Shown here one piece after another: positions 3,539 to 22,446 of a stretch of DNA of 32,461 nt. Origin of the DNA: Gemmatimonadales bacterium (GTDB taxonomy: Bacteria > Gemmatimonadota > Gemmatimonadetes > Gemmatimonadales > GWC2-71-9). The translations under genes were made by a program, and so were the position numbers. Under the pieces are notes generated by a model. The model had not been told where the DNA came from, ran no database searches, and was given only the letters and a program-made list of their open reading frames with translations. Numbering within the stretch: position 1 is the first letter of the stretch; the number at the start of each line of letters is the position of its first letter. Location of the stretch: the NCBI GenBank assembly GCA_025928955.1, contig JAICNA010000006.1, forward strand, positions 1 to 32,461, read 5' to 3'.

Positions 3539-4321
3539 TCAGCCGCGTTCGGCGCCCTGAATCAGGTTGCGGGCTTCCCAGAGCTCGGGGAAGACCCGGC
3601 GTGCCACGGTTCCACGGAGGTACGATGCCCCGTCGCTGCCACCGGTGCCGGGGCGCCCGCCGATGATGCGCTCCACCATCTGCACGTGCCGCATGCGCCA
3701 GAGCGTCACCATCTCGTCGAAGTCGAGCAGCGCCTCGGCGAGGAGAAAGAGCTCCATCTGCGCCGCCGCACTCCGGTAGAGCGAGGCGACACCTTCGGCA
3801 TCGGCGGTGAAGCCGCGGCGGACGAGCAGGTCGTGAAAGGCGGCACGGAGCGTCCGGCCCCCGAGGCGGCGCTCGAGGCGCGCCCGCTGTGCCGAGCCGC
3901 GCTCGTACGACTCGAGGTACCGAGGCTCGGCCAGGCCGGCGAGGAATTCGATCTCGCGGAACTGCGCCGACTGGAACCCGCTCGCGGGCATGAGGTGATC
4001 GCGAAAGGCGAGGAAATCCATCGGCGTCATCGTCTCGAGCACGGCGACCTGCGCCACCAGCACGCGCTGGATCTCGTGGCAGCGCCGGAGGAGGCGGAGT
4101 CCGCCGAGGACGTCGTCGCGGTCGAGATGGGTGACGATCGCATCGAGCTCGTGCAGGAGCTGCTTGAACCAGAGCTCGTACACCTGATGGATGATGATGA
4201 AGAGCGTTTCGTCGTGCTGCGCAGGATCGGAACGGAGCTGCTGGAGCGCGGTGAGATCGTCCACGCGCAGATAGCCGCCGTAGCTGAGCTTCTGTTCGCT
4301 GTCGGGCCGGCCGAAGGGCAT
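3539..4321 (-). CDS. kynA: Tryptophan 2,3-dioxygenase (TDO)
   Basis: Heme enzyme that inserts O2 into L-tryptophan to give N-formyl-L-kynurenine, the first step of the kynurenine route. The ATG at 4321 gives 260 aa, close to bacterial TDOs; the ORF-track start at 4441 lies inside the SGNH gene. Visible hallmarks are 'LFIIIHQVYELWFKQLLHEL' with active-site His45, 'FRDHLMPASGFQSAQFREIE' with substrate-binding Arg107, and 'RMRHVQMVERIIG' with the proximal heme ligand His212, followed by 'GTGGSDGASYLR'. It is the last catabolic gene of the minus-strand operon, 16 bp after the SGNH hydrolase. Finding TDO on the same strand as the anthranilate-CoA genes ties the cluster to tryptophan rather than to free anthranilate alone. 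Confidence 0.96.
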   Translation of the reverse strand: MPFGRPDSEQKLSYGGYLRVDDLTALQQLRSDPAQHDETLFIIIHQVYELWFKQLLHELDAIVTHLDRDDVLGGLRLLRRCHEIQRVLVAQVAVLETMTPMDFLAFRDHLMPASGFQSAQFREIEFLAGLAEPRYLESYERGSAQRARLERRLGGRTLRAAFHDLLVRRGFTADAEGVASLYRSAAAQMELFLLAEALLDFDEMVTLWRMRHVQMVERIIGGRPGTGGSDGASYLRGTVARRVFPELWEARNLIQGAERG

Positions 4322-4337
4322 CGAGGCTAATCCGGGA

Positions 4338-4988
4338 TCAGGAAGAGGGAAAGATGGCGTGCGTACCGAGTGCCGCCAGTGCATGCGGAAGCGCGAGCTC
4401 CGCCCAGCGCGCGTACATGGCGCCGGCCGGGTGCAGGCCATCCGCGGCGCTCAGGTGCGGCGCACCTGCCGCGAGCCGCGACGCGGGCAGCACGTCGACG
4501 TAGCGTGCGGCGGCGCGCCCGGCCTCCTCGCGATTCACGCGGTTGAACTGCTCGATCTCGGCCGCGATGCGCGCGCGATCGCGCCCCTCCGCGAACGGCG
4601 TGACGCCCCAGTCGGGAATCGCGAGGACCAGCACGCGACCGGGGGCGCCGCCCGCGAGATTCACGGCCCTCGCGAGCAGCGTCCGGAACTGGTCACGGTA
4701 CTCGGCGAGGCTCCGGCCGCGATACTGGTTGTTCACGCCGACGAGGAGGGAAACCAGGTCGTACGGCGGGCGGAGGTGCGCCGAGTCGATGCCCGCCTGC
4801 AGCTCGTCGGTCGTCCAGCCCGTCGTCGCGACGATCTCGGGGTGCGCGACCCGGACTCCGCGAAGCGCGAGCAGCCGGACCAGATGATCGGGCCAGCGCT
4901 CCGCTGCCTCCACCCCTTCGCCGATCGTGTAGCTGTCGCCGAGCGCGAGAAACCTGAAGGCCTGCGGCTCGGTGCGCGATGACGTCAT
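4338..4988 (-). CDS. SGNH/GDSL-type hydrolase
   Basis: A 216-residue cytoplasmic-looking esterase-type hydrolase (no signal peptide). Block I is 'FLALGDSYTIGEG' with nucleophile Ser19, block III is 'VGVNNQY' with Asn86, and block V is 'DGLHPAG' with Asp183 and His186. The ATG at 4988 overlaps the stop of the alpha/beta hydrolase by four bases (ATGA). Family members hydrolyse esters, thioesters or acetyl groups. Here it sits directly before tryptophan 2,3-dioxygenase in a cluster with no canonical KynB-type formamidase, so a role in N-formylkynurenine deformylation or in thioester hydrolysis is conceivable. That is inference from position only. Confidence 0.9.
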   Translation of the reverse strand: MTSSRTEPQAFRFLALGDSYTIGEGVEAAERWPDHLVRLLALRGVRVAHPEIVATTGWTTDELQAGIDSAHLRPPYDLVSLLVGVNNQYRGRSLAEYRDQFRTLLARAVNLAGGAPGRVLVLAIPDWGVTPFAEGRDRARIAAEIEQFNRVNREEAGRAAARYVDVLPASRLAAGAPHLSAADGLHPAGAMYARWAELALPHALAALGTHAIFPSS

Positions 4989-5797
4989 TCCGCGTGCCGC
5001 GCGAGGAAATCGAGGGTCGCGGCGCGGCAGAGCCCGGGCTGGTCGGCCCACATGTCGTGCGTCGCGTCCGGGACCCGCACCCGCTCCACGTGCCGCAGCG
5101 TGCGGGCCAGGAGGTCGTCGACGAAGCGATGGAGGGGAACCGTCCGGTCCGCGCTGAGCATGAGCGCCGGCATGCGGAGCGCGGCGACGTCCTCGGCCGC
5201 CAGCCAGGGCCAGGGGTCCTCCGACACGGTGAAGGCTTCCCAGTCCCGCGCGTTGCGCATGACCCGCTCGCGAACCCGGTCGGGGAGACGCGCGAAGGTG
5301 CCCTCGCCCACGAAGTAGTCGGTGACGTACTGCATCGCTTCTTCCGGGGCGTGGCGCCGGAAGGCATCGCCTGCGGGGTGCCACATCTCGGCGAGGAAGC
5401 GATCCCAGCCGGCACGCCCCTGCGGATGCTCGCGCGCCCAGGGGAGGAGCGGTGGTTCCGCGAGCGTGAGCGTTCGGACGAGCGTGGGGTGGGCAACGGC
5501 GCAGAAGAGCGCCGCCACGCCGCCGATCGAATGCGATACGAGGTGCACCGGTCCGAGCTCGAGCGCCGTCAGCAGCTCGGCCAGATCCTCCCCGTCGGTG
5601 CGTGCCGAGTAGTCCGGAACGATCGGGCCGTTCCGGTTCGGCTCCGCGTAGCGCCGACTGTAGGCGATGACGAGGTGCCGCTCGGCGAACGCCGCCAGGT
5701 GCGGCGTCCAGTAGGTGAGATCGTTTCCGCCGCCGTGCACGAGGACGACCGGCTCGCCGGCGCCGCTCTGCACGTAGTGCAGTGCCGCCCGGCTCAT
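4985..5797 (-). CDS. Alpha/beta-fold hydrolase
   Basis: A 270-residue alpha/beta hydrolase. The oxyanion-hole motif 'LVHGGGND' lies near residue 20, the nucleophile elbow is 'LVSHSIGGV' (Ser90), and the acid and base are Asp217 (MLSADRTVP) and His247 (PDATHDMW), giving an intact triad. I chose the ATG at 5797 (MSRAALHYVQSGAG) because the fold begins there; an in-frame ATG six codons upstream at 5815 is also possible. The stop overlaps the SGNH start. In this operon it could be the kynurenine formamidase (mammalian AFMID is an alpha/beta hydrolase) or a hydrolase acting on a ring-opened CoA intermediate. Sequence alone does not separate these options. Confidence 0.9.
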   Translation of the reverse strand: MSRAALHYVQSGAGEPVVLVHGGGNDLTYWTPHLAAFAERHLVIAYSRRYAEPNRNGPIVPDYSARTDGEDLAELLTALELGPVHLVSHSIGGVAALFCAVAHPTLVRTLTLAEPPLLPWAREHPQGRAGWDRFLAEMWHPAGDAFRRHAPEEAMQYVTDYFVGEGTFARLPDRVRERVMRNARDWEAFTVSEDPWPWLAAEDVAALRMPALMLSADRTVPLHRFVDDLLARTLRHVERVRVPDATHDMWADQPGLCRAATLDFLARHAE

Positions 5798-5831
5798 GCA
5801 TGCGATCCGGCTCATCCGGCGGCGTGCGCGC

Positions 5832-6701
5832 TCACGCGTCCCCGTCCCAGCGATAGAAGCCTTCGCCACTCTTCCGCCCGAGTTTCCCCTCCGACACCAT
5901 GCGCCTGAGCAGCTCAGGCGCCCGGAACACTTCGCTGCCGAGCGCCGTGTGGAGATGGTCGGCGATGGCGAGCCTGACGTCGAGCCCGACGATGTCACCG
6001 AGGCGGAGCGGACCGATGGGGTGGTTGTAGCCGAGCTCCATGGCGCGATCGATGTCCGCGGCCGAAGCGACCCCCGCCTCGAGCATGCGCACCGCCTCGA
6101 GCCCGAGTGCCAGGCCCAGGCGACTCGTCGCGAACCCGGGGGAGTCCCGCACGACGATTGCGGTCTTGCCCAGCGACTCGGCAAACGCGCGCGCGGCCTC
6201 CACGGCCGTGTCCGACGTCGCGGCGCCGCGCACGATCTCGACGAGGCGCATCGCGGCGACGGGGTTGAAGAAGTGCATGCCGACGACGCGCTCAGGACGG
6301 GGGACTGCCGCGGCGATGTCGGAAATGGAGAGCGACGAGGTGTTGCTGGCCAGGATGGCGTGCGGCGGTGCCGCCGCATGGGCGGCGGTGAAGAGCGACC
6401 GCTTGAGCTCCATCCGCTCCGGCACCGCCTCGATCACGAGGTCCGCCCCGGCCGCCGCGGATTCGAGCGCCGGAAACGTGGTGAGGCGGGCAAGGCCGGC
6501 GTCACGATCCGCAACCGAGAGCTTCTTCCGCTCGATCGCCGCGGCGAACGATTCGGCGATGCGATCGTGCGCGGCGAGCAGGGCGTCCCGGTCGGCGTCG
6601 GCGAGCGCCACCTCATAGCCGGCGGCCAGCGCAACGTAGGCGATCCCGTGTCCCATCGTGCCGGCGCCGATGACGGCCACACGGCGGATCGCCGACGTCA
6701 C
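5832..6701 (-). CDS. 3-hydroxyacyl-CoA dehydrogenase (NAD-dependent)
   Basis: Oxidises an L-3-hydroxyacyl-CoA to the 3-ketoacyl-CoA with NAD+. The N-terminal Rossmann domain starts with 'VAVIGAGTMGHGIA' (residues 8-21). The conserved 'ASNTSSL' and 'GMHFFNPVAAM' carry the catalytic His143 region. The C-terminal helical domain has 'MELGYNHPIGPLRLGDIVGLD' and ends 'GRKSGEGFYRWDG', standard for the HBD/PaaH group. The length of 289 aa fits single-function enzymes. The start is taken as the GTG at 6701 because it makes a GTGA overlap with the thiolase stop. In the pathway it probably works just before the thiolase on the ring-opened dicarboxyl-CoA. Confidence 0.94.
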   Translation of the reverse strand: MTSAIRRVAVIGAGTMGHGIAYVALAAGYEVALADADRDALLAAHDRIAESFAAAIERKKLSVADRDAGLARLTTFPALESAAAGADLVIEAVPERMELKRSLFTAAHAAAPPHAILASNTSSLSISDIAAAVPRPERVVGMHFFNPVAAMRLVEIVRGAATSDTAVEAARAFAESLGKTAIVVRDSPGFATSRLGLALGLEAVRMLEAGVASAADIDRAMELGYNHPIGPLRLGDIVGLDVRLAIADHLHTALGSEVFRAPELLRRMVSEGKLGRKSGEGFYRWDGDA

Positions 6702-7894
6702 TCGCACCGCTCCACCACGACGGCGATGCCCTGGCCGACGCCGATGCACATCGTGGCCAGCCCATACCGGCCGCCGCTCCGACGGAGCTCGTGCACGAGC
6801 GTCGTGAGGATGCGCGACCCGCTGGATCCGAGCGGATGCCCGGAGGCGATCGCGCCGCCGTTCACGTTGACGCGCGCCGGGTCGAGGCCCAGTTCGCGAA
6901 TGCAGGCGATGGCCTGGGCTGCGAACGCCTCGTTCAGCTCGATGAGCGCGAGGTCCTCGACCGCGAGGCGCGCGCGCGTGAGCGCCTTCCGCGTGGCGGG
7001 AACCGGCCCGATGCCCATGATCTCGGGCGGCACCCCGGCGACGGCGCTCGCCAGGATGCGCGCCATGGGGCGCAGTCCCCCCGCTGTCGCGGCCGACCGG
7101 CTCATCACGAGAAGCGCACTCGCGCCGTCGTTGATGCCGCTCGCGGAGCCTGCGGTGACGGTTCCTCCTTCGCGGAACGCGGGCCGGAGCCTGCCGAGCG
7201 ATTCGACCGTCGTATCGGGGCGCGGGTGCTCGTCGGTCGAGACGACGATCTCGCGGCCGCGCTCCCGCACCGTGACCGGTACGACCTCGCCGGCGAAGCG
7301 GTCCGCTGCCTGGGCGGCGGCCGCACGGCGCTGGCTCTCGTGCGCGAAGCGGTCCTGCTCCTCCCGCCCGATCCCATACCGCTCGGCGACATTCTCGGCC
7401 GTCTCACCCATCGAGACGGTCCAGTGTGGGGGGAACGCAGGGTTCGTGAACCGCCAGCCGATCGTCGAGTCGGCGAGCGACGGCGCCGAGCGCGGAAACG
7501 GCGTTTCGGGCTTGAGCATCACCCAGGGCGCGCGCGACATGCTCTCGACGCCGCCGGCGATGAAGCATTCGCCCTCGCCGGCCCGCACGGCCTGCGCAGC
7601 GCTCGCCACGGCCTGCAGGCCCGAGCCGCAGAGCCGGTTCACCGTCTGCCCCGCGACTTCCACGGGGAGGCCGGCGAGGAGAAGCGCCATCCGCGCCACG
7701 TTGCGCGAGTCTTCGCCGGCCTGATTGGTGCAGCCGAGGATCACGTCCTCGATCCGGGTGGGATCGACGCCGCTTCGCGCCACGAGGGCGCGAATGGCGT
7801 GCGCCGCGAGGTCGTCCGGCCGCACGCGCGCGAGCGCGCCGCCATGCCGGCCCACCGGCGTCCGGACCGCATCCACGATGACCGGATCATTCAT
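6698..7894 (-). CDS. Acetyl-CoA acyltransferase (thiolase, PcaF/PaaJ-like)
   Basis: A 398-residue degradative thiolase that cleaves a 3-ketoacyl-CoA with CoA to release acetyl-CoA. The acyl-accepting cysteine is in 'VNRLCGSGLQAV' (Cys89), the catalytic His is in 'ASGHPLGSSGSR' (His353), and the second cysteine is in 'TMCIGVGQG' (Cys383). The overall layout resembles beta-ketoadipyl-CoA thiolases, which fits a last step on a C6/C7 dicarboxyl-CoA intermediate, but substrate length cannot be decided by eye. The ATG at 7894 lies eight bases inside the RidA gene, and the stop overlaps the 3-hydroxyacyl-CoA dehydrogenase start (GTGA). Confidence 0.95.
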   Translation of the reverse strand: MNDPVIVDAVRTPVGRHGGALARVRPDDLAAHAIRALVARSGVDPTRIEDVILGCTNQAGEDSRNVARMALLLAGLPVEVAGQTVNRLCGSGLQAVASAAQAVRAGEGECFIAGGVESMSRAPWVMLKPETPFPRSAPSLADSTIGWRFTNPAFPPHWTVSMGETAENVAERYGIGREEQDRFAHESQRRAAAAQAADRFAGEVVPVTVRERGREIVVSTDEHPRPDTTVESLGRLRPAFREGGTVTAGSASGINDGASALLVMSRSAATAGGLRPMARILASAVAGVPPEIMGIGPVPATRKALTRARLAVEDLALIELNEAFAAQAIACIRELGLDPARVNVNGGAIASGHPLGSSGSRILTTLVHELRRSGGRYGLATMCIGVGQGIAVVVERCE

Positions 7895-8297
7895 CCGCGA
7901 TCACCGCAGTGGCCTCGATCTCGACCAGCGCGAGCGGCTCGAGGAGGCCGGCGACGATCACGAGCGACATCGCCGGATAGTGGCGGCCGATGACGGTGCG
8001 ATACGCCTCGCCGATCTCGCGGCGGCGCTGCTCGTACTCCTTCCGCTCGACGACATACCAGGTGAGCCGCACGAGGTGCCGCGGCTCGGCTCCCGCCGCG
8101 CGCAGCACGGCGACCACGTTCTCGAGCGCCCGGCGCACCTGGCCCACCATGTCGTGCGCCTCGAACGTCTGCGTGGCCGGATTCCAGCCGGTCTGGCCGG
8201 CCACGCTCACGATGCGCCCGCGCGCGCTCACTCCATTCGCATAGCCGGATGGCGGAAGCCAGCCCTCGGGCTGGATGATGCGGTGCTCCTCGCTCAC
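7887..8297 (-). CDS. RidA/YjgF-family protein
   Basis: A 136-residue Rid-fold protein ('IVSVAGQTGWNPAT', 'VRRALENVVAVLRAAGAEP', 'LALVEIEATAVI'). Rid proteins hydrolyse reactive enamines or imines, and the related AmnD-type protein deaminates 2-aminomuconate, so a family member in an amino-aromatic pathway makes sense. However, the arginine that binds the imino acid carboxylate in RidA (Arg105 of E. coli, in 'PARS') appears to be Met here ('YPAMSLV'). The canonical 2-iminopropionate deaminase chemistry is therefore doubtful. The start is GTG at 8297, overlapping the ligase stop as GTGA. A ring-derived enamine with a CoA thioester instead of a free carboxylate would not need that Arg; this is inference. 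Confidence 0.92.
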   Translation of the reverse strand: MSEEHRIIQPEGWLPPSGYANGVSARGRIVSVAGQTGWNPATQTFEAHDMVGQVRRALENVVAVLRAAGAEPRHLVRLTWYVVERKEYEQRRREIGEAYRTVIGRHYPAMSLVIVAGLLEPLALVEIEATAVIADE

Positions 8298-9940
8298 GCA
8301 CCCTCCTCGCGCAGCACGAAGCGCTGCAGCTTGCCGGTGGCCGTTCGCGGGAGGGCGGTGACGAACTCGACCTGCCGCGGATACTTGTGCGGCGCGATCT
8401 CCCGCTTGACGTGGTCCTGCAGCTCCTTCGCCATCGCCGGCCCCGGCTCGTGGCCCTCACGCAGGACCACGAACGCCTTGACGACCTGGCCGCGCTCCTC
8501 GTCCGGCACGCCCACCACGCCGCATTCGGCGACGGCCGGATGCTCGAGGATCACGCTCTCCACCTCCGGACCGGCGATGTTGTGCCCCGACGAGATGATC
8601 ATGTCGTCGGTGCGCGCCTGGTAGACGAAGTAGCCGTCGGCATCGATCACGTACGAATCGCCGGTGATGTTCCAGCCGTTCTGCACGTAGGCGCGCTGCC
8701 GCTCGACGTCGTCGAGGTAGCGGCATCCGGTCGGGCCCCGTACGGCAAGGCGGCCGATGGCACCCTGCGCCACGTCGTGGCCGTCCTCGTCGACCACCCG
8801 TGCGTCGTAGCCGGGCACGGGCTTTCCGGTGGCGCCGGGCTTCATCTCGGCGGGCCGTGCGCTGATGAAGATGTGGAGCATTTCGGTGGAGCCGATCCCG
8901 TCGATGATGCGGATGCCCGTGGCGCGCTCCCAGGCCTCGAACGTAGAGGCAGGCAGCGTCTCGCCCGCGGAGACGCACTTCCGGAGTGTCGGCACGCCTT
9001 CGGTGCCGAGCAGTGGAAGCATGGCGCGATACGCCGTGGGCGCCGTGAAGCTGATCGTGGCCCCGAAGTCACGGATGCCCTGCAGGAGGTGGGGTGGCGC
9101 GGCCTGCTCGAGCAGCACGGCGCTCGCGCCGATCCGCATCGGAAAGAGCACGAGTCCGCCGAGTCCGAACGTGAACGCCAGGGGCGGGGAGCCGCAGAAG
9201 ACGTCGTCGGGGCCCGGCTCGAGGATGTGCGGCGGAAAGCAGTCGCAGATGGCCAGCACGTCGCGGTGGAAATGCATCGTGCCCTTTCCCTTGCCGGTCG
9301 TACCGGACGTGAACGCGATGAGCGCCACATCGTCGGCCGCGGTGTCGACGTTCCGGAAGGTGGGCGGGCGCCGCCGCATGAGCGACTCGAGCGAGTCCGC
9401 CGCATCGCTGTTGAAGCAGACGACGCGGGCGTTCGCTCGCGCGGCGCCGGTGCCGGTGCGCTCCATGCCGGCGCGGCAGTCGCCCTCGAGCCGGGCATCG
9501 GTGAGGGCGAGGCTGATCGCGGCGCGGTCCGCCGTGTAGCAGATCTCGCGCGGGCGGAGGAGTGGCATGGTGCAGACCACGACGCCCCCTGCCTTCAGCA
9601 CCGCGAACCAGCAGGCGACCATCATCGGATTGTTCGGTCCGCGGAGCAGGACCCGCCCACCCGGGACGAGACCGAGATCGGTGACGAGGACGTTGGCGAT
9701 CCGGTTCGCGCGCTCGAGCAGGTCGCCGTAGGTCCAGACGCCGCCGGGAAAATGGAAGAGTGGATCGTCGCCGTGGCCCTTCGCGACCATCGCGTCGAGC
9801 AGCTCGGTGGCGCAGTTGAGGCGCGGAGGATAGGCGAGCCCCGCCGCGCGGTCGTAGCGCATCTCGGGCCAGAGGACGCGGGGCGGGAGCCGGTCGCGGC
9901 AGAACGTGTCCACGTGCCCCGACGGGACGCGGGCGGTCAT
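8294..9940 (-). CDS. abmG: 2-aminobenzoate-CoA ligase (anthranilate-CoA ligase)
   Basis: Adenylate-forming enzyme predicted to convert anthranilate, ATP and CoA into 2-aminobenzoyl-CoA. It is 548 aa from the ATG at 9940, the usual length for this class. Motifs in order are the P-loop '[16 protein letters not shown]' (about 210-225), '[11 protein letters not shown]', 'NITGDSY', '[19 protein letters not shown]' and the C-terminal '[12 protein letters not shown]' with catalytic Lys537. The 'STEMLHIF' and '[11 protein letters not shown]' signatures are those of benzoate/2-aminobenzoate-CoA ligases. Substrate choice is supported mainly by the adjacent AbmA-type monooxygenase/reductase; benzoate or salicylate cannot be excluded. 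ATGA overlaps with the dehydrogenase upstream and GTGA with RidA downstream indicate one translation unit. Confidence 0.9.
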
Positions 9941-11097
9941 GCGCGCTCCAGGAGCTGCGCCGCGATCACAAGGCGCTGGATCTCGCTCGTGCCCTCGTAG
10001 ATCCGGAGTGCCCGGATCTCGCGGTACAGCCGCTCGACCGGAGCGCCCGACACGACGCCGAGGCCGCCGAACAGCTGCACGGCATCGTCGATGACGCGCT
10101 GCGCCGCTTCCGTGGCGTGGAGCTTGGCCATCGCGGCCTCGAGTGTCACGCGCTCGGCGCCCATGTCCTTCGTCCAGGCGGCCCGGTAGACGAGCAGCGC
10201 GCTCGCGTCGATGGCGGTGGCCATGTCGGCGAGGCGTGCCTGCGTGAGCTGGAAGCCGGCGAGGGTGCCGCCGGCCACGCTCCGTGCCCGACAATGCGCG
10301 GTCGCCTCTGCGAGCGCGCGACGCGCCATCCCGGTGGCCGCGGCGCCGACCGTGGCGCGGAAGACGTCGAGAGTCCCGAGCGCGACGCGGAGGCCCTTGC
10401 CGGCGTCACCGACGGCGGCGTCGGCCGCGACACGGCATTCCCGGAAGGCAATCGTTCCGAGCGGGTGCGGGGCGATGACGTCGATCCGCTCCGTGACGGA
10501 CAGCCCCGGATTGTCGGCGTCCACCATGAAGGCGCCGAACGCGCGCTCGCCCAGGTCGGGGGTACGGCAGAAGACCACGTAGTGATCGGCGATGCCGGCA
10601 TTGGAGATCCACGTCTTCTCGCCGTCGATGACCCAGCCGTCGCGGTCACGGCGTGCCGCCGTGCGCATCGCGGCGACATCGCTCCCCGCGTCCCGCTCGG
10701 AGAGTGCGAAGGCCGCGATCCGGCGTCCATCGGCCACGTCGGGGAGGTACCGCCGGCGCTGCGCATCGGTGCCGTACAGGGACAGCGGCCCGGTGCCGAG
10801 GCCCTGCAGCGCAAAGCAGAACTCGACGAGCGGATCATGACGTGCGAGCGTCTCACGGATGACGCAGAGCGACCGGACGTCCACCCGCTCGCGCACTCCA
10901 CCGTACGCGGCGGGCACGACGTGGCGCAGCCAGCCGGCCTCGCCGAGCCGCTGCACGTGGGCGCGGCAGCGCGCATCGAGATCGTCCGCGTGCGCGGCAC
11001 CGGCGAGCTCGCGCGTGGCCCAGGCCTCCACGTCGGCACCGAGGGTGCGGTGGCTCTCGTCGAAGAACGGCCAGGCGAGATGGGCGTGCGGCTGCAC
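9937..11097 (-). CDS. Acyl-CoA dehydrogenase
   Basis: FAD enzyme that alpha,beta-dehydrogenates an acyl-CoA. The start is GTG at 11097, which shares one base with the crotonase stop (TAGTG); the ORF-track start at 11445 lies inside the crotonase gene. This gives 386 aa. '[15 protein letters not shown]' (about 130-144) and '[14 protein letters not shown]' are the FAD-binding strands. The catalytic glutamate is kept in '[12 protein letters not shown]' (Glu368), and 'QLFGGLGVV' is the C-terminal signature. In the anthranilate pathway it would act on a non-aromatic cyclic or ring-opened CoA ester made after the AbmA reaction. The electron acceptor (ETF) is not encoded in the window. Confidence 0.94.
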
Positions 11098-11903
11098 TAG
11101 TCGCCCTCGAACTTCGGCGCCTGCTTCGCGACGAACGCGCGGTACGCCCGGGAGAAATCCTCCGACTCCATCAGCTCCGCCTGGACCTCCGCCTCGTAGT
11201 CGATCGCCTCGTCGATCCCCATGTCCCACTCCTCGTGCAGCGCGCGCTTGGTGGCGGCATGCGCGAGCGTCGGGCCCGCGGCGAGCGTGCGGGCGAGCTC
11301 GACCGCCGCCGGCAGGAGACCCTCGGGCTCGGCGAGCCGATTGTAGAAGCCCCAGCGCTCGGCTTCGACGCCGTCCATGAAGCGGCCGGTGTACAGCAGC
11401 TCGGCGGCGCGGCCGTGCCCGACGATGCGGGGGAGCATGGCGCACGCGCCCATGTCCGCGCCGGAGAGCCCGACGCGCACGAAGAGAAACGCGACGCGGC
11501 TCGCGGGGGTGCCGATGCGCAGGTCGGAGGCCATGGCGAGGATCGCCCCGGCGCCGGCACAGACCCCGTCCACCGCGGCGACGATCGGCTGGGGGCAGGC
11601 GCGCATCGCATGCACCAGCTCGCCGGTGAGGCGCGTGAACGCGATGAGCTCCTCGTCGCAGCCGTCTTCCTTCAGCTGTACCAGCGGCCCGATGATCTCG
11701 TGCACGTCCCCGCCGCTGGAGAAGTTGCCGCCCGCGCCGGTGAGCACGACCGCGCGGACGTCCGGGTTCTCGCGCAGCGCCCAGAAGGTGTTCGCCAGCT
11801 CGCGATACGACTCGAAGGTGAGCGGATTCTTCCGCTCGGGCCGGTTGAGCGTGATCGTCGCGACGCGCTCCTCGAGCGACCAGAGAAAGTGCTTCGGATT
11901 CAT
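11097..11903 (-). CDS. Crotonase-superfamily protein (enoyl-CoA hydratase/isomerase-like)
   Basis: A 268-residue crotonase fold with the first oxyanion loop '[15 protein letters not shown]' and the second '[21 protein letters not shown]'. Aligned by eye to rat mitochondrial enoyl-CoA hydratase, the two catalytic glutamates (Glu144, Glu164) fall on Ile121 and Arg143. The later '[18 protein letters not shown]' keeps an Asp (Asp150) that occurs in a crotonase subgroup with altered chemistry. It may therefore not be a simple hydratase; isomerisation or hydrolytic C-C cleavage of a cyclic 1,3-diketo-type CoA ester are possibilities. The ATG at 11903 follows the SDR stop by 16 bp, and its stop overlaps the acyl-CoA dehydrogenase GTG. 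Confidence 0.9.
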
Positions 11904-11919
11904 CCGCGGTCTCGCGCCA

Positions 11920-12698
11920 TCATACCTCGCCCCCGGAAACGGGAATCACCCGGCCGTTGATCGCGTCCGCCGAGGGCGCCGCGAGCCAGGCGACCACGTG
12001 CGCCACTTCCTCGGGGCGAATGATCGTGCCTCGGGGATTGTGCCGGATCACCATCGCGCGCGCCTCCGCGGCGCTCTTCCCGAGACCGGTCATGATGTTC
12101 TTCTCGGCCTGGATCGACATGCCGGACTCGGTGTAGCCGGGACAGACGGCATTCACCGTGATGCCCGCCTTGCGCACCTCGGCCGCGAGCGAGCGCGTCA
12201 ACCCGACGAGCGCGTGCTTCGAGGCGCTGTACGCCGTGATGCGGCCATACCCCTTGAGGCCGGCCATCGAGGCAACGTTGACGATCCGGCCGCCTTTCGC
12301 GTCGAGCATCGCCGGCAGGACTTCGCGGATGCAGGCGACGGCCCCGAGGAGGTTCACGGCGAGCGCCTCGTTCCAGACCTCCGGCGTCGTCTCCATGAAC
12401 GGGGCCGCCGTGGCAGTTCCGGCGTTGTTCACGAGGAGCCAGGGGCGGGGAAACCGGTCCCGCGATTCCGCGAACGCCGCCGTGACGCTCGCCGGATCGG
12501 CCACGTCGCACGCGATGGCGAGCACCTCGGACGTCTTCTTGCGAAGCGCGACGGCATGCGCGCCGAGCGCCGCGGCGTCGCGCCCCATGAGCGTGAGCGT
12601 GGCTCCCTGCGCGGCGAGCTCGGCGGCGATCGCGGCGCCGATCCCCCGGGCGCCGCCGGTCACGATCGCGTGCCGGCCCGAGAGCGGAAGCGAGAGTG

Positions 12699-12702
<4 letters not shown>
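11920..12702 (-). CDS. Short-chain dehydrogenase/reductase (SDR)
   Basis: A 260-residue classical SDR. The cofactor loop is '[16 protein letters not shown]' (residues 15-30), followed by 'LVNNAGTA', the catalytic triad region '[27 protein letters not shown]' (Ser, Tyr and Lys all present) and '[12 protein letters not shown]'. It would oxidise or reduce a hydroxyl/keto group with NAD(P). With both an SDR and a 3-hydroxyacyl-CoA dehydrogenase in the operon, one plausible split is that the SDR handles the ring ketone/alcohol formed by AbmA and the other handles the ring-opened chain. The start ATG at 12702 overlaps the AbmA stop by four bases, so its production is tied to that enzyme. Confidence 0.93.
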
Positions 12703-15007
<2,305 letters not shown>

Positions 15008-15008
<1 letters not shown>

Positions 15009-16177
15009 CAGAGGAGTCCCGACACGGGATTCGGCTCGCCCTCGGCGAAGCGCGAGGGCCTGAGCGGCGTCGTATCGAGCGTCGTGGCGCGGCCCTCGGT
15101 GATGATCTCGGCGAGGAGGTGGCCAAGCGCGGGCGCGTGCATCACGCCGTGGCCCGACGAGCCGTTGATGAAATAGAAGTTGCCGCACTCGGGCGCGGGA
15201 CCGAGGATCGCGTGCTTGTCCGGGGAGACTTCGTAGAGCCCGCCCCATGCGCCGCTCCGGTCGAGCGGAACGCCGGCCAGGACGGGCACACGCGCGGCGG
15301 CCTTCGCGGCCACCTCGTCGATCCACGGCGTTTCGACGCGGCAGTCGTACGGGTCCGCCGCGGATCCGGGTGTCGGCCACGCGAGCAGCACTCGCCCGTC
15401 GCGCACCCGTAGATGGAAACCGTCGCCGGCAAAGATCGTCATCGGCATCCCGGCAGGAAGGAGGTCACAGGGCATGGTCGGGACGATGCAGCGCCGGAGC
15501 GGCTCGATCGGCAGCGGGGCCCCCGCGAGCGCAGCCACACCCGCCGCCCAGGCGCCCGCCGCATTGACCACCGCACCCGCCTCGATCCGCCCGCGCGTCG
15601 TCCGCACCGCGGTGATACGAGTCGTCCCCGGCGCGCCCTTGCGCTCGAACCCCGTGACCTCCGTTTCCCACATGGTGCGAGCGCCGCGGCGGCGGGCGTC
15701 GGCGAGATACCCGGCGAGCATCGCCAGGGGGCGGATGAATCCATCGGTGGGACACCAGGCGCCTCCTGCGATTCCCTGAGGCGACAACGCCGGATTCAGC
15801 TGGAGCACTTCCGCCGCGTCCACCTCGCGCGACTCGAGCAGGCCGGCCGCGTGCTGGACCGGCAGTCCACGACGCAGCTCCGCCAGTTCCCATTCGGTTC
15901 CGGCGACCCAGAGGTAGCCTGCGGGCAGGTATCCGGGATCGGCACCGACTTCATCGGGAAAGCGGCGCAGCTTCTCGCGGGTGAGGAGCGAGAGTCGGAC
16001 ATTGATCGCGGTGCCGTACTGCGCCCGGTACCCGCCTGTGGCCCGGCCGGTACTGCCCTCGCCGGGTCCCGCACCGCGATCCACGATGACGATATCGCGC
16101 CAGCCGCGCGTGGCGAGGTGCCAGGCCACGCTCGCGCCGACGACGCCGCCTCCCACGATGACGATCGGGCCGTCCAT
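15008..16177 (-). CDS. DAO-family FAD-dependent oxidoreductase
   Basis: A 389-residue flavoprotein of the D-amino-acid oxidase/glycine oxidase/sarcosine oxidase group. The dinucleotide-binding motif is '[21 protein letters not shown]' at residues 5-25. '[13 protein letters not shown]' follows, then '[17 protein letters not shown]' and the C-terminal '[19 protein letters not shown]' that closes the FAD site. Such enzymes oxidise C-N bonds of secondary or primary amines to imines. Being second in the anthranilate operon, joined by one-base TGATG overlaps on both sides, it may act on an amino-bearing intermediate or on a related N-substituted aromatic; no specific substrate can be named. No signal peptide is seen. 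Confidence 0.9.
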
Positions 16178-16596
16178 CACGCCGGCGTGAAGATGTGCTC
16201 GGGGTTCCGGAAACTCTTGAACTCGAGCGCGTTGCCGCTCGGATCGAGGAAGAACATCGTGGACTGCTCGCCCGGCTGCCCCTCGTACCGCACGCGCGGC
16301 TCGATGATGAACTCGATCCCTGCGGCGCGCACACGCGCGGCAATGGCCTGAAAGCGATCCCATTCGACCACGGCGCCGAAGTGGGGCATGGGCACGGCGA
16401 TGCCATCCACCTTGCCGGCATACACCGTCGGTGCCGGGGCGCCGGTCGTGTGCGCCGAGATCTGGTTGCCGAAGAAATCGAAATCCACCCACGTCTCGGT
16501 ACTGCGCCCTTCGGTGCAGCCGAGCACGCCTCCATAGAAGCGACGGGTCGAGTCGAGATCCTTCACGAAGAAGGCAAAGTGAAACGGCTGGGGCAT
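16177..16596 (-). CDS. VOC-superfamily protein (glyoxalase/dioxygenase fold)
   Basis: A 139-residue vicinal-oxygen-chelate protein beginning MPQPFHFAFFVKDL at the ATG at 16596, preceded by an AGGAG ribosome-binding site. Two beta-alpha-beta-beta-beta units are recognisable ('RRFYGGVLGC', then 'MFFLDPSGNALEFKSF'). Likely metal ligands are His6, the His in 'VPMPHFG' and the Glu in 'NALEFKSF', so a divalent-metal enzyme is plausible. VOC proteins include glyoxalases, epimerases and ring-cleaving dioxygenases. It is the first gene of the tightly coupled catabolic string (70 bp after queG), which suggests a real pathway role, but the reaction is unknown. The ORF-track start at 16728 extends back into queG and was rejected. 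Confidence 0.9.
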   Translation of the reverse strand: MPQPFHFAFFVKDLDSTRRFYGGVLGCTEGRSTETWVDFDFFGNQISAHTTGAPAPTVYAGKVDGIAVPMPHFGAVVEWDRFQAIAARVRAAGIEFIIEPRVRYEGQPGEQSTMFFLDPSGNALEFKSFRNPEHIFTPA

Positions 16597-16666
16597 AGGC
16601 TCCTGCGGTGGGAGAGCGTCGCGACCTGCGAAAGATGTCGCCAGTGACCCGCCGGATGGAAGGCGG

Positions 16667-17617
16667 CTACTCGCTCCGGGCTTTCCGGCTCGCGAGCGCC
16701 GCGCGCACGTTCCGCTGCATGCCGGCAAGGCCGGGCCGCGCGAACGGGGTCTCCCCGAAACGCCCGGCGAACTCGGCTTCGTCCATTCCTTCGAACGTGT
16801 CGGACGTGATCGGCCGGGCCGCGCGAGGGAGATAGGAGGGAATCGCGGTCTCCGCGGCGAACTTCACGTTCCACGGGCAGACGTCGTTGCAGACATCACA
16901 CCCGAACGCCCAGCCGTCGAGGCGCTCCTCGAGCGCTTCGGGAATCGGGCCCTTCTGCTCGATCGTGAGGTACGAGATGCATCGCGTGGCATCGAGGAGT
17001 CTCGGCGCCACGAACGCCCCAGTGGGACAGGCGTCGAGGCACCGCGTGCATGATCCGCAGCGATCGCCTTCGAAGGGAGCATCGGGCTCCAGCTCGAGAT
17101 CGGTGAAGACGGACCCGATGAAGAAGAACGAGCCGGCCCCGGGGCGGACGAGCATCGCATTCTTCCCGATCCAGCCGAGTCCGGCGCGCTGCGCCAGCTC
17201 GCGCTCGGGAACAGGCCCGGCATCGGCGTACGTGCGCGCATGCAAGGCGCCGGCACCGAGCAGGCGGCCGGCGAGTTCCTCGAGCCGACGGCCAATCACG
17301 TCATGGTAATCGGTCGCAAGTGCGTAACGCGCGACGCGGAGCGGGTCTGGGTCCCCTGATTCCGGGTCGGCCGCCGCTTCTTCGTTGTAGTAGTAGTTAT
17401 CCAGAACAACAATGATGGAGCGCGCGGCGCGATCGATGAGCCGCGGATCCTTCCGCTTCCGGGCCTGCCGGTTGAGGTAGCGCATCGTCCCGCCGTATCC
17501 GCGGGCGAGCCACTCGTCGAAGAACGCAGCTCGCTCGGACGGTGCGGGGGTGGTGATGCCGCAGGCGAGGAAGCCAAGCTCATCGGCCCACTGCTTCACG
17601 GCGAGCGACGAAATCAT
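16667..17617 (-). CDS. queG: Epoxyqueuosine reductase QueG
   Basis: Cobalamin and [4Fe-4S] enzyme that reduces epoxyqueuosine to queuosine in tRNA. The catalytic Asp lies in 'TYADAGPVPERELAQRAGLGWIGKN' (Asp132), a near-diagnostic stretch. Two ferredoxin-like clusters follow: 'CGSCTRCLDACPTGA' (Cys187, 190, 193, 197) with Cys213, and 'CDVCNDVCPWN' (Cys240, 243, 247). At 316 aa it is the short form without the C-terminal HEAT repeats of some homologues. The ATG at 17617 overlaps the NADH dehydrogenase stop (ATGA). No other queuosine gene is in the window. It has no obvious link to the catabolic operon downstream, which starts 70 bp beyond its stop. Confidence 0.95.
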   Translation of the reverse strand: MISSLAVKQWADELGFLACGITTPAPSERAAFFDEWLARGYGGTMRYLNRQARKRKDPRLIDRAARSIIVVLDNYYYNEEAAADPESGDPDPLRVARYALATDYHDVIGRRLEELAGRLLGAGALHARTYADAGPVPERELAQRAGLGWIGKNAMLVRPGAGSFFFIGSVFTDLELEPDAPFEGDRCGSCTRCLDACPTGAFVAPRLLDATRCISYLTIEQKGPIPEALEERLDGWAFGCDVCNDVCPWNVKFAAETAIPSYLPRAARPITSDTFEGMDEAEFAGRFGETPFARPGLAGMQRNVRAALASRKARSE

Positions 17618-18927
17618 CGCGCTCCGGCCTCCAGCGCCGGCTCGGCATCCGCCGACCGGGGCGCGGTCGGCATATGAACGGGCCGGTCATAGGTGATGAG
17701 GCGTGCTCCGCGCGAATAGGTGAAGTAGGAGATTGCCCACTCGAGCAGCACGAGGACGCGGTTGCGGAAGCCGATGAGGAAGAAGATGTGAATGAAGATC
17801 CACAGGAGCCAGGCGATGAACCCCGAGAAGTGCGCCTTTCCGATGTCCGCGACGGCACGTCCCCGGCCGATGACGGCGAGCTGTCCCTTGTCGAAGAAAT
17901 GGAACGGGGGGCGGGGGCCCGGGGTAGCGGCCGATGTCTCCCGCCGGATCACGGACCCCGCATACTTCCCCATCTGAATCGCGACGGGGCAGGTGCCCGG
18001 GAGGAGCCGACCCTTGTCGTCGAAGGCCGCTGCGTCTCCGAGCACGAAGACTTCGGGATGACCGGGCACGGTGCTGTCCTGCGCGACCGGAACCCGACCC
18101 TGTCGGTCGAGCGGGACGCCGAGCGTCTTGAGCAACGGACTGGCGACATTGCCGGCGGCCCAGATGACCGTTCTGGCCGGGGTGTATTCGCCGGAGCTTG
18201 AGGTGACACCGTCAGGACGGATATCCGTCACCATCGTATTAGTGCATACGTCGACCCCCAGCCGCTCAAGGGTCTGCTGCGCCTTCTCGCTCAATTCCGG
18301 CGGATACGCCGGCAGCACCCTCGGGCCACCTTCCATCACGATCACCCGCGCGCTCCGCGGATTGATGTTCCGGAAGTCCCGCTCGAGCGTGTAGGACTTG
18401 ATCTCGGCGATCGCGCCCGCCACTTCGACGCCGGTCGGACCGGCGCCGACGATCACGAACGTGAGCAGCGCTTCCCGCGCAGCGGGATCGGGCTCCTGCT
18501 CCGCACGTTCGAACGCGAGGAGGATCCGTCGCCGCACCACGAACGCGTCCTCGAGCTCCTTGAGTCCCGGCGCCAGCGGCTCCCACTCGTCCCGGCCGAA
18601 GTAGGAATGTCGCGCTCCCGTCGCGACGATCAGGTAGTCGTAGGGCAGCGACCGCCCCGAGACCAGGTGCACGCTCCGTGCGCCGAGGTCGATGGCCTCG
18701 GCCTCGTCGAGCAGCACCTCCGTATTCCGGTTGTTGCGCAGGACCGACCGGATCGGCGACGCGATGTCCCCCGGGCTCAGCGCCGCCGTTGCCACCTGGT
18801 AGAGCATCGGCTGGAAGACGTGGTGATTGTGCCGGTCCACCAGGGTCACCGATACCCGGGCCTTCCGGAGCGCCTTGGCGGCATTGAGCCCGGCGAAGCC
18901 GCCGCCGAGAATCACCACGCGTTTCAC
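17614..18927 (-). CDS. ndh: Type II NADH dehydrogenase (NDH-2)
   Basis: Single-subunit, non-proton-pumping NADH:quinone oxidoreductase. I use the GTG at 18927 (VKRVVILGGGFAGLNAAKAL), which forms a GTGA overlap with the upstream small gene and starts right at the FAD-binding strand; the ORF-track GTG at 18951 lies eight codons further up. This gives 437 aa. The FAD motif is 'GGGFAGL', the NADH motif 'FVIVGAGPTGVEVAGAIAE', and the third FAD contact 'VFVLGDAAAF'. The C-terminus has an amphipathic/hydrophobic membrane anchor ('FIAWLLWIFIHIFFLIGF'), as usual for the family. It re-oxidises NADH at the inner membrane and could serve the NADH-producing catabolic genes nearby. Confidence 0.92.
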   Translation of the reverse strand: MKRVVILGGGFAGLNAAKALRKARVSVTLVDRHNHHVFQPMLYQVATAALSPGDIASPIRSVLRNNRNTEVLLDEAEAIDLGARSVHLVSGRSLPYDYLIVATGARHSYFGRDEWEPLAPGLKELEDAFVVRRRILLAFERAEQEPDPAAREALLTFVIVGAGPTGVEVAGAIAEIKSYTLERDFRNINPRSARVIVMEGGPRVLPAYPPELSEKAQQTLERLGVDVCTNTMVTDIRPDGVTSSSGEYTPARTVIWAAGNVASPLLKTLGVPLDRQGRVPVAQDSTVPGHPEVFVLGDAAAFDDKGRLLPGTCPVAIQMGKYAGSVIRRETSAATPGPRPPFHFFDKGQLAVIGRGRAVADIGKAHFSGFIAWLLWIFIHIFFLIGFRNRVLVLLEWAISYFTYSRGARLITYDRPVHMPTAPRSADAEPALEAGAR

Positions 18928-19208
18928 AGGTGCATCGTCTCCCGGCGCCACCGCGCGAAGCGGATCACGTCTTCTGCCGGCGGCACCGCATCCTCACTCG
19001 CGTACGCCGTGTACATGCGCCAGCGGAGGTAGGTGCGGTCGGGAAGCGGCAGGAAGGGGGGCTGGCGCCACCAGTCGCGCCGGCGGAAGGCCCAGCCCGT
19101 CCGGAGCAGATCCACGGCGAGCCGGGGATTCACCAGCGCTCGCAGCGCGAGCTTTCCGGTGAGCGCGCGCCACGAGCCGGCGTAGCGGGGATCGAGGGGT
19201 GCGGGCAT
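18924..19208 (-). CDS. Small conserved-looking protein, unknown function
   Basis: A 94-residue protein with no family I recognise. It is rich in Arg, Trp and Leu ('LLRTGWAFRRRDWWRQPPF', 'YLRWRMYTAYASED') and ends with a mixed-charge tail; no transmembrane segment or cysteine motif is visible. The ATG at 19208 is the first gene of the minus strand after the divergent promoter region. A GGAGG sits 13 bases upstream of the ATG and a TAGAAT box lies between them, so leader length is uncertain. Its stop overlaps the NADH dehydrogenase start, so the two are probably made together. Confidence 0.65.
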   Translation of the reverse strand: MPAPLDPRYAGSWRALTGKLALRALVNPRLAVDLLRTGWAFRRRDWWRQPPFLPLPDRTYLRWRMYTAYASEDAVPPAEDVIRFARWRRETMHL

Positions 19209-19250
19209 TCCGAATTCTAACCTCCCCGAACCCGGGATATATTCACCACC
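19209..19250. promoter_or_regulatory. Divergent promoter region (42 bp) with -10-like boxes close to both starts
   Basis: Only 42 bp separate the divergent ATGs. On the plus strand a TATATT lies at 19238-19243, seven bases before the kynureninase-like ATG, a spacing typical of leaderless transcripts. On the minus strand TAGAAT lies about seven bases before the other ATG. No good -35 is visible for either. The boxes stand out because the surrounding DNA is very GC-rich. Transcription starts have not been measured, so this is a prediction. Confidence 0.45.
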
Positions 19251-20399
19251 ATGACGCTCGCCTCACCCGGAGCGGTGAAGACGTATCGGGACGAGTTTCC
19301 GATCTTCCGGCACTCGACGTACCTCAACAGCTGCTCCCTCGGCGCGCTCAGCGTGCGGGCACGGGCGCGGGTGAACGAGTGCCTCGATCTCTGGGAGAAC
19401 CGGGGCGCGCCTGCCTGGTACGAGATCTGGTGGGCGGCGCTCGCCGACCTCCGAACCCGCTACGGCCGGATCGTCGGGGCGGCCGGCGAGGAAATCGCTC
19501 TCCACCCGCACATCTCGGCTGCGCTGTCGGTCGTCGGCGAGTCGCTCGACTACGGCACCCGGCGAAAGGTCGTCGTCACCAGCCTCGACTTCCCGACGAT
19601 CGGCTATCAATGGATGGCCAAGCGCCAGGCCGGGGTCGAGGTCGTCGTCATCGAGAGTCCGGACGGCGTCCGCGTACCGCTCGAGCTGTTCGAGCGCGCG
19701 GTGGACGACCGCACGGCACTGGTGGCTACGAGCCACGTCTTCTTCACCAGCGGCGCCATCCAGGACGTGGCGGCGATCGCCGAGATGGCCCACCGCAAGG
19801 GGGCGCTCTGCCTGGTGGACGGCTACCAGGCCGCCGGCCAGCTGCCGGTGGATGTGAAGGCGCTAGGCGTCGACTTCTACTGTGGTGGGGGGCTCAAGTG
19901 GCTCCTCGGCGGGACGGGCGTCGCATTCCTCTACGCAGCGCCGGACGTGACGCCGAAGCTCTTCCCGCGAGTCACCGGATGGTTCGCCCATCGGGAGCAG
20001 TTCCGGTTCGACACGCGGAGCCTCGAGCTGCACGCCGATGCCCGGCGGCTCGAGCTCGGCACGCCGCCGATCATGCCGGTCTACGCGCAGCGCGGCGGGC
20101 TCGAGATTCTCGAGGAGCTCGGCAGCGAGGCCATCCGCCGGAGGACGGCGGAGCTGACGGAGGACCTGATCGAACTCGCCGAGGCGCATGGCCTCCGGCC
20201 GCGCGTCGCGCCGGTGGCAGCGGAACGCTCCGCGATCGTCATGCTGCCGAGCGACGATCCGCACCGCGACGTCGCGATGCTCGCCGCCGCCGGGATCGTG
20301 ACCGACGCCCGTCCGGGACACGTCCGCGTCTCCCCATACTTCTACAACGTGCCCGACGATCACCGGGCCCTCATCGAGCACCTGACGCGTGAACGATAA
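19251..20399 (+). CDS. kynU: PLP-dependent class V enzyme, probable kynureninase
   Basis: A 382-residue fold-type I PLP enzyme of the aminotransferase class V/kynureninase family. 'HVFFTSGAIQDVAAIAEMAH' and 'LVDGYQAAGQLPVDVKALGVDF' carry the cofactor Asp190. The Schiff-base lysine is in 'GGGLKWLLGGTGVAFLY' (Lys216), where kynureninases have a similar K-Y/W-L-N/G-G-G/T pattern. Kynureninase cleaves L-kynurenine to anthranilate and alanine, exactly the missing link between the TDO and the anthranilate-CoA ligase coded on the other strand. By sequence alone a cysteine desulfurase-like or isopenicillin-epimerase-like enzyme cannot be excluded, so the symbol is tentative. It is probably leaderless and is the first gene of the plus-strand operon. 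Confidence 0.75.
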   Translation: MTLASPGAVKTYRDEFPIFRHSTYLNSCSLGALSVRARARVNECLDLWENRGAPAWYEIWWAALADLRTRYGRIVGAAGEEIALHPHISAALSVVGESLDYGTRRKVVVTSLDFPTIGYQWMAKRQAGVEVVVIESPDGVRVPLELFERAVDDRTALVATSHVFFTSGAIQDVAAIAEMAHRKGALCLVDGYQAAGQLPVDVKALGVDFYCGGGLKWLLGGTGVAFLYAAPDVTPKLFPRVTGWFAHREQFRFDTRSLELHADARRLELGTPPIMPVYAQRGGLEILEELGSEAIRRRTAELTEDLIELAEAHGLRPRVAPVAAERSAIVMLPSDDPHRDVAMLAAAGIVTDARPGHVRVSPYFYNVPDDHRALIEHLTRER

Positions 20400-21213: not shown

Positions 21214-21270
21214 GAGTCGGAACGGGGAACGGGGCAGAGGGACCGGCAAAGGCATGCGAGAGGAAACGGG

Positions 21271-22442
<1,172 letters not shown>

Positions 22443-22446
<4 letters not shown>

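What the first reader, a model, noticed from the sequence alone, without database searches (positions are those of the whole stretch)
3539..20399. Near-complete tryptophan to 2-aminobenzoyl-CoA catabolic locus across two divergent operons
TDO (3539-4321) and the AbmG/AbmA-type pair (8294-9940, 12699-15008) are on the minus strand, and a kynureninase-like enzyme starts the plus-strand operon (19251). Together they predict tryptophan to N-formylkynurenine, kynurenine, anthranilate and 2-aminobenzoyl-CoA, followed by dearomatisation and a beta-oxidation-like set. The 2-aminobenzoyl-CoA route was defined in Azoarcus evansii and only its first steps are well characterised, as far as I know. Linking it physically to tryptophan breakdown with a full set of lower-pathway candidates is the strongest system-level signal here.
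Basis: partly seen in the sequence, partly recalled or inferred. Interest (0 to 1): 0.75.

Follow-up and report, generated by a model that had tools for sequence, protein, structure and literature searches.

The report
Tryptophan-dioxygenase-linked anthranilyl-CoA breakdown operon
A bacterium of the Gemmatimonadota carries, in one run of genes, the first enzyme of tryptophan breakdown and a known oxygen- and CoA-dependent pathway that destroys anthranilate; the linkage is real and recurs in other bacteria, but the gene proposed to join the two halves (a kynureninase) is probably something else.

Summary
The core observation holds. The AbmA-SDR-ECH-ACAD-ligase-RidA core recurs across phyla. In 72 same-family genomes TDO and AbmA co-occur strongly (24/25 against 14/47, p = 3.5e-8), and trees show the linkage arose at least three times. 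The gene at 19251 scores 105 bits against a kynureninase cut-off of 246, lacks three active-site residues, lies outside the kynureninase clade, and belongs to a conserved block (QueG-NDH2 <> this gene-LOG-DHS-MFS) that is more frequent in relatives without TDO. No KynB formamidase is in the assembly. This is a tryptophan/anthranilate operon of a known kind with two unassigned steps; the SGNH hydrolase beside TDO is a formamidase candidate. Sister lineages carry another divergent PLP enzyme after TDO, a possible unrecognised kynureninase. The tryptophan route through AbmA is already named in the literature as incompletely understood.

The parts
3539..4321 (-). TDO, tryptophan 2,3-dioxygenase (260 aa)
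   Evidence: PF03301 207.8 bits; heme ligand and substrate residues kept against X. campestris TDO; gene bounds
4338..4988 (-). SGNH/GDSL hydrolase; candidate N-formylkynurenine formamidase (inference)
   Evidence: PF13472 82 bits; catalytic Ser/Gly/Asn/His blocks present (GDSYT, TTGWT, GVNNQ, DGLHP); in the same family found only in the TDO subclade and always beside TDO
4985..5797 (-). alpha/beta hydrolase, lower-pathway hydrolase or thioesterase (role inferred)
   Evidence: PF12697 56.3 bits; also follows RidA in an AbmA cluster without TDO, locus L147
5832..6680 (-). 3-hydroxyacyl-CoA dehydrogenase
   Evidence: PRK09260 332 bits, below its cut-off of 429
6698..7894 (-). thiolase, 3-oxoadipyl-CoA-thiolase-like
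   Evidence: PRK09050 567 bits, cut-off 605; TIGR01930 above cut-off
7887..8297 (-). RidA-family protein; proposed deaminase of the ring enamine (inference)
   Evidence: PF01042 72 bits; found with AbmA in 51 of 63 loci that extend far enough
8294..9940 (-). AbmG-type anthranilate(benzoate)-CoA ligase
   Evidence: best solved relative 4wv3 anthranilate-CoA ligase E 1e-91; TIGR02262 358 bits, cut-off 375
9937..11097 (-). acyl-CoA dehydrogenase
   Evidence: PF00441 152 bits; with AbmA in 51 of 63 loci
11097..11903 (-). enoyl-CoA hydratase family protein
   Evidence: PRK08258 433 bits, cut-off 330; with AbmA in 58 of 63 loci
   Evidence: open frame with SDR motifs; homologues beside AbmA in 55 of 63 loci
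12699..15008 (-). AbmA/ACMR: 2-aminobenzoyl-CoA monooxygenase/reductase type fusion
   Evidence: PRK08255 1239.7 bits, cut-off 1078; FAD-monooxygenase plus OYE domains
15008..16180 (-). FAD-dependent amino-acid-oxidase-like protein; membership in the pathway doubtful
   Evidence: PF01266; close homologues in TDO-less relatives G023, G029, G033
16177..16596 (-). VOC/glyoxalase-fold protein; membership doubtful
   Evidence: PF00903 50.2 bits; shared with L130 at 78%
   Evidence: TIGR01814 105.1 against cut-off 246.4; missing active-site residues; separate clade; conserved block independent of TDO

Best explanation
The minus-strand genes 3539-15008 form one operon for aerobic use of tryptophan and anthranilate by the 2-aminobenzoyl-CoA route. 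TDO opens the indole ring. Two unassigned steps give anthranilate. The ligase makes 2-aminobenzoyl-CoA. [quoted passage not shown] RidA probably removes the amino group by hydrolysis of this enamine, and SDR, hydratase, dehydrogenases and thiolase open the ring and shorten the chain. The SGNH hydrolase next to TDO is the best candidate for the formamidase. The kynureninase is not identified; the gene at 19251 is only a weak candidate. Shown here: gene content, order, family membership, co-occurrence and repeated linkage. Inferred: all substrates, the RidA step, the formamidase and the order of the lower steps.
For: TDO and AbmA families and residues. Neighbouring genes abut or overlap by a few bases. 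The AbmA-SDR-ECH-ACAD-ligase-RidA core recurs in loci of several phyla. TDO is present in 24 of 25 AbmA-bearing relatives against 14 of 47 without AbmA. TDO lies in the same cluster in close relatives L128 and L129 and directly after AbmA in other same-family genomes. TDO and AbmA trees give at least three different pairings, so the linkage was assembled repeatedly. Literature: cells grown on anthranilate contain a C7H8O4 CoA ester that may be the deaminated cyclohexanedione-carboxyl-CoA, and two anthranilate-CoA ligases were confirmed (PMC3534580).
Against: No recognised formamidase and no kynureninase above cut-off in the assembly; no kynureninase above cut-off in the closest relatives G041 and G066 and no PF04199 in G041 and G034, although these assemblies are incomplete. 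The ligase is just below the benzoate-CoA-ligase family cut-off. Family names alone do not separate salicylate from anthranilate: NCBI calls AbmA's family salicylyl-CoA 5-hydroxylase/oxidoreductase.
Confidence: 0.72

Rival explanations
1. One reading: the gene at 19251 is the kynureninase, so the two divergent gene groups together encode a near-complete pathway from tryptophan to 2-aminobenzoyl-CoA.
For: Best solved relative is P. fluorescens kynureninase 1qz9, E 2.4e-31. It keeps the PLP lysine, Asp201, Phe129, Trp256 and the C-terminal arginine region. It is the only kynureninase-like gene found in this assembly, and related enzymes with the same Leu-Lys motif lie near TDO and AbmA in Actinomycetota locus L075 and near AbmA in L081.
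Against: 105 bits against a cut-off of 246, tied with SufS. Asp132, His204 and Tyr226 are replaced by Ile, Gln and Leu. It lies outside the kynureninase clade, whose support is 100/98. Orthologues occur in 29 of 34 same-family genomes without TDO and 21 of 38 with it. The conserved neighbours are QueG, NDH2, LOG, DHS and MFS. The predicted fold fits SufS and kynureninase equally.
Confidence: 0.18
2. The cluster degrades salicylate (or another 2-substituted benzoate) rather than anthranilate; TDO is an unrelated neighbour.
For: NCBI names the AbmA family salicylyl-CoA 5-hydroxylase/oxidoreductase, and the ligase belongs to the wider benzoate-CoA-ligase family.
Against: TDO co-occurs and co-localises with AbmA repeatedly. 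A RidA-type protein sits with AbmA in 51 of 63 loci, which fits an amino substrate. The closest solved relative of the ligase is an anthranilate-CoA ligase.
Confidence: 0.07
3. Kynureninase is bypassed: the FAD oxidase at 15008-16180 oxidises kynurenine and a hydrolase splits the resulting 2-aminobenzoylpyruvate to anthranilate and pyruvate.
For: An oxidase of the amino-acid-oxidase family and two hydrolases lie in the run; G034 has VOC, oxidase, SGNH hydrolase and TDO together without AbmA.
Against: Close homologues of the oxidase occur in TDO-less relatives G023, G029 and G033, and in G041 it is on another contig.
Confidence: 0.03

Closest known systems
2-aminobenzoyl-CoA (abm) pathway of Azoarcus evansii, described by Schuhle et al. 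2001 as cited in PMC4539516
   Same: Ligase plus monooxygenase/reductase fusion, with breakdown by beta-oxidation-like enzymes.
   Different: Here TDO is part of the same gene run, with an SGNH hydrolase beside it; the organism belongs to Gemmatimonadota.
kynBAU anthranilate pathway of aerobic tryptophan breakdown (from memory: Kurnasov et al. 2003)
   Same: TDO starts the route and anthranilate is the expected intermediate.
   Different: No KynB (PF04199) and no kynureninase above cut-off were found here.
TDO-KynU-AbmA loci of Maricaulis, Niveispirillum and Mameliella found here (L036, L053, L011, L078)
   Same: TDO next to the same AbmA core.
   Different: They carry canonical KynU-type genes beside TDO (the Mameliella one passes the cut-off with 279 bits); the window does not.
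Same-family clusters with AbmA, TDO and a divergent PLP enzyme (L134 to L142)
   Same: AbmA and TDO adjacent, SDR-RidA-ECH-ACAD core.
   Different: Different AbmA and TDO clades, and a TDO-linked PLP enzyme that the window's genome lacks.

Membership tests
Tryptophan 2,3-dioxygenase | Pfam Trp_dioxygenase above gathering score | tested here: met
   207.8 bits, cut-off 34.9
Tryptophan 2,3-dioxygenase | NCBIfam equivalog TIGR03036 above cut-off | tested here: not met
   230.5 bits, cut-off 390.7: a divergent TDO
Tryptophan 2,3-dioxygenase | Heme ligand and substrate-binding residues | tested here: met
   F51, H55, R117, H240, T254 kept; Y113 is Phe
2-aminobenzoyl-CoA monooxygenase/reductase (AbmA) | Fusion of FAD monooxygenase and OYE-type reductase, PRK08255 above cut-off | tested here: met
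   1239.7 bits, cut-off 1078; both domains present
2-aminobenzoyl-CoA monooxygenase/reductase (AbmA) | Activity on 2-aminobenzoyl-CoA | not testable with these tools
   needs enzyme assay
Anthranilate-CoA ligase (AbmG) | Aryl-CoA ligase most like characterised anthranilate ligases | tested here: inconclusive
   top solved hit 4wv3 anthranilate-CoA ligase, benzoate-CoA ligase close behind; TIGR02262 slightly below cut-off
Anthranilate-CoA ligase (AbmG) | Preference for anthranilate | not testable with these tools
   needs enzyme assay
Kynureninase (gene at 19251) | TIGR01814 above cut-off | tested here: not met
   105.1 bits, cut-off 246.4
Kynureninase (gene at 19251) | Active-site Asp132, His204, Tyr226 | tested here: not met
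   Ile, Gln, Leu instead
Kynureninase (gene at 19251) | Groups with kynureninases in a tree | tested here: not met
   kynureninase clade 100/98 excludes it
Kynureninase (gene at 19251) | Co-occurs with TDO or AbmA | tested here: not met
   negative with TDO p 0.0096, none with AbmA p 0.43
KynB kynurenine formamidase | PF04199 in the genome | tested here: not met
   none in the 78.5% complete assembly

The most novel reading that the evidence does not exclude
In this Gemmatimonadota family the link between TDO and the anthranilyl-CoA pathway runs through enzymes not yet recognised: an SGNH hydrolase as N-formylkynurenine formamidase in the window's subclade, and in sister genera a divergent PLP enzyme (only Pfam KYNU_C sees it), next to TDO in 24 of the 25 genomes in which it was found, as a new kynureninase type.
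Probability: 0.35. Interest if true: 0.55.

Novelty: new member of a known kind. Interest (0 to 1): 0.4.

Why it matters
The lower part of the 2-aminobenzoyl-CoA pathway is an open question: a 2022 pathway-annotation study omitted tryptophan breakdown via anthraniloyl-CoA monooxygenase/reductase for lack of knowledge (PMC9007349). A small conserved set of genes (SDR, hydratase, acyl-CoA dehydrogenase, RidA) that follows AbmA across phyla gives a short list of enzymes to assay, and suggests that RidA does the deamination. The repeated independent joining of TDO to this cluster supports tryptophan as a main natural source of its substrate. The missing kynureninase and formamidase mark where new enzyme families may be found.

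Tried and rejected
The frame 11900-12511 (203 aa) is a shadow frame; the real gene is the SDR at 11920-12702. The FAD oxidase at 15008 as a pathway member: close homologues occur in TDO-less genomes. Fold comparison of the 19251 protein: SufS and kynureninase tie, so uninformative. Promoter and terminator scan between the two gene groups found nothing above shuffles. Solved-structure search with the SGNH hydrolase found no relative. Literature searches found no paper in the held library with 2-aminobenzoyl-CoA, tryptophan and kynureninase together, and none of the four papers holding both 'kynurenine formamidase' and 'GDSL' looked like a report of such an enzyme from its title and abstract (not read further). 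TIGR01814 misses some distant relatives in genome searches (G041 has a 74% orthologue of 19251 that it did not list), so absence of canonical KynU rests on canonical members scoring far higher (279-441 bits).
Full report
What was checked. The window is contig C223 of a 2.77 Mb, 78.5% complete assembly. Its close relatives are Gemmatimonadota: locus L004, 73% identical in AbmA, comes from a Gemmatimonadales genome.

The minus-strand run. Gene calling by codon usage gives a packed series: VOC 16177-16596, FAD oxidase 15008-16180, AbmA 12699-15008, SDR 11920-12702, ECH 11097-11903, ACAD 9937-11097, ligase 8294-9940, RidA 7887-8297, thiolase 6698-7894, 3-hydroxyacyl-CoA dehydrogenase 5832-6680, alpha/beta hydrolase 4985-5797, SGNH hydrolase 4338-4988, TDO 3539-4321. 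Neighbours overlap by a few bases or are separated by at most 34, which suggests one transcript.

Identity of the pathway genes. TDO matches Pfam at 207.8 bits, is a divergent member by NCBIfam (230.5 against 390.7), and keeps the distal histidine, the heme-ligand histidine, and the arginine and threonine that bind tryptophan in X. campestris TDO (residue roles from general knowledge). AbmA passes the curated cut-off of the bifunctional family PRK08255 and holds both the FAD-monooxygenase and the OYE domain. That family's NCBI name says salicylyl-CoA, so the name alone does not settle the substrate. The best solved relative of the ligase is an anthranilate-CoA ligase.

Conservation across phyla. 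A scan of species genomes with AbmA gave 80 loci. Of 63 loci with at least 6 kb downstream, ECH occurs in 58, SDR in 55, ligase in 52, ACAD in 51 and RidA in 51. TDO lies within the fetched stretch in ten loci, among them Maricaulis, Niveispirillum, Mameliella, Limimaricola, an Acidobacteria genome and an Actinobacteria genome; several also have a KynU gene there. Of 20 AbmA-bearing genomes tested, 16 have a TDO somewhere.

Co-occurrence within the family. Among 72 same-family genomes, AbmA or clear fragments of it are in 25. TDO is in 24 of these and in 14 of the other 47 (Fisher p = 3.5e-8). Related genomes are not independent, so the p-value is indicative. The trees help: the window's TDO groups with those of G041, G066 and G034 (98), while its AbmA groups with genomes of another family in the order and with G041 and G066 (99). 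The other same-family clusters have a different TDO clade (99) and a different AbmA clade (100). Proteobacterial loci have a third TDO clade. An Acidobacteria locus (L059) pairs the second TDO clade with a proteobacterial-type AbmA. The linkage has thus been assembled at least three times.

The gene at 19251. Four tests go against kynureninase. Score: 105.1 bits against a cut-off of 246.4, tied with SufS. Residues: Asp132, His204 and Tyr226 of the P. fluorescens enzyme are Ile, Gln and Leu, while the PLP lysine, Asp201, Phe129 and Trp256 are kept. Tree: it and its orthologues form their own clade (100/100) outside the kynureninase clade (100/98). Distribution: orthologues at 56% identity or more are in 50 of 72 same-family genomes, in 29 of 34 without TDO and 21 of 38 with it (p = 0.0096, a negative association), and are unrelated to AbmA (p = 0.43). 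Its neighbours QueG, NDH2, LOG, DHS and MFS are kept in relatives that have neither TDO nor AbmA, for example L153, L155 and L156. It also shows no cysteine of the SufS type in its C-terminal loop (ARPGHVRVSP; motif from general knowledge), so it is probably not a cysteine desulfurase either. Its function is open. A predicted model fits SufS and kynureninase equally well. A residual case for kynureninase remains, because no better gene is in the assembly and because related enzymes lie near AbmA, in one case with TDO, in two Actinomycetota loci.

What stands in for the missing steps. Other same-family genomes place a different PLP enzyme after TDO. A search of 37 genomes found it in 25, and in 24 of these it follows TDO on the same strand, nearly always at once and in one genome after about 1.1 kb (coordinates). 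Pfam sees only the kynureninase C-terminal domain in it (35.9 bits, cut-off 27); NCBIfam does not name it; it keeps His204, Tyr226 and the lysine. It is absent from the window's genome and from G041, G066 and G034. In these four the TDO gene is instead next to an SGNH hydrolase with its catalytic blocks intact, and no PF04199 formamidase was found in G000, G041 and G034. Among the same-family genomes searched, the SGNH hydrolase was found only in this subclade (G066). Against it as a dedicated formamidase: G105, of another family, has a homologue but is not among the genomes with a TDO match. I give the SGNH formamidase about one chance in three.

Mechanism. [quoted passage not shown] In Arthrobacter, two anthranilate-CoA ligases were confirmed, and a CoA ester of a C7H8O4 acid, possibly cyclohexanedione-carboxyl-CoA, was seen only in anthranilate-grown cells (PMC3534580). 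RidA proteins hydrolyse enamines and imines (general knowledge), so RidA is a sensible agent for that deamination; this is inference. The rest of the lower pathway is inferred from family membership only.

Novelty. The combined route is named in the literature, as one omitted from an annotation tool for lack of knowledge (PMC9007349), and Cupriavidus metallidurans has been annotated with both kyn and abm genes (PMC8879955). I therefore file the locus as a new member of a known kind. The interesting remainder is the set of unassigned middle steps and the conserved gene list for the lower pathway.

Noticed in passing
L136:10725-11924 and relatives (L134, L135, L138, L139, L142): Divergent PLP enzyme after TDO in 24 of the 25 same-family genomes where it was found; only Pfam KYNU_C recognises it. 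Possible new kynureninase type.
   Followed up: partly
window 19251-23963: Block of class V PLP enzyme, LOG-family protein, homospermidine/deoxyhypusine-synthase-like protein (PRK00770 above cut-off) and MFS transporter, with QueG and NDH2 divergent, kept across the family irrespective of tryptophan genes; function unknown.
   Followed up: partly
L128:10370-11827 and L129:10467-11930: An aromatic-amino-acid-decarboxylase-like PLP enzyme sits inside the AbmA cluster of the two closest relatives, between ligase and acyl-CoA dehydrogenase; absent from the window.
   Followed up: partly
L130:9906-12888 (genome G034): VOC, FAD oxidase, SGNH hydrolase and TDO stand together next to QueG without any AbmA genes, as if the AbmA cluster had been inserted into, or lost from, this site.
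   Followed up: partly
L132:8963-12726 and L133:16707-19872: A protein with pyruvate-ferredoxin-oxidoreductase and DUF6537 domains, of the kind found in indolepyruvate oxidoreductases (from memory), lies directly upstream of AbmA in one genus of another family in the order.
   Followed up: no
L189, L190, L191: In a third family of the order, a relative of the 19251 gene lies next to a PF04199 (KynB-like) gene.
   Followed up: no
window 3028-3528: MgtC-family membrane protein gene directly downstream of TDO on the same strand.
   Followed up: no
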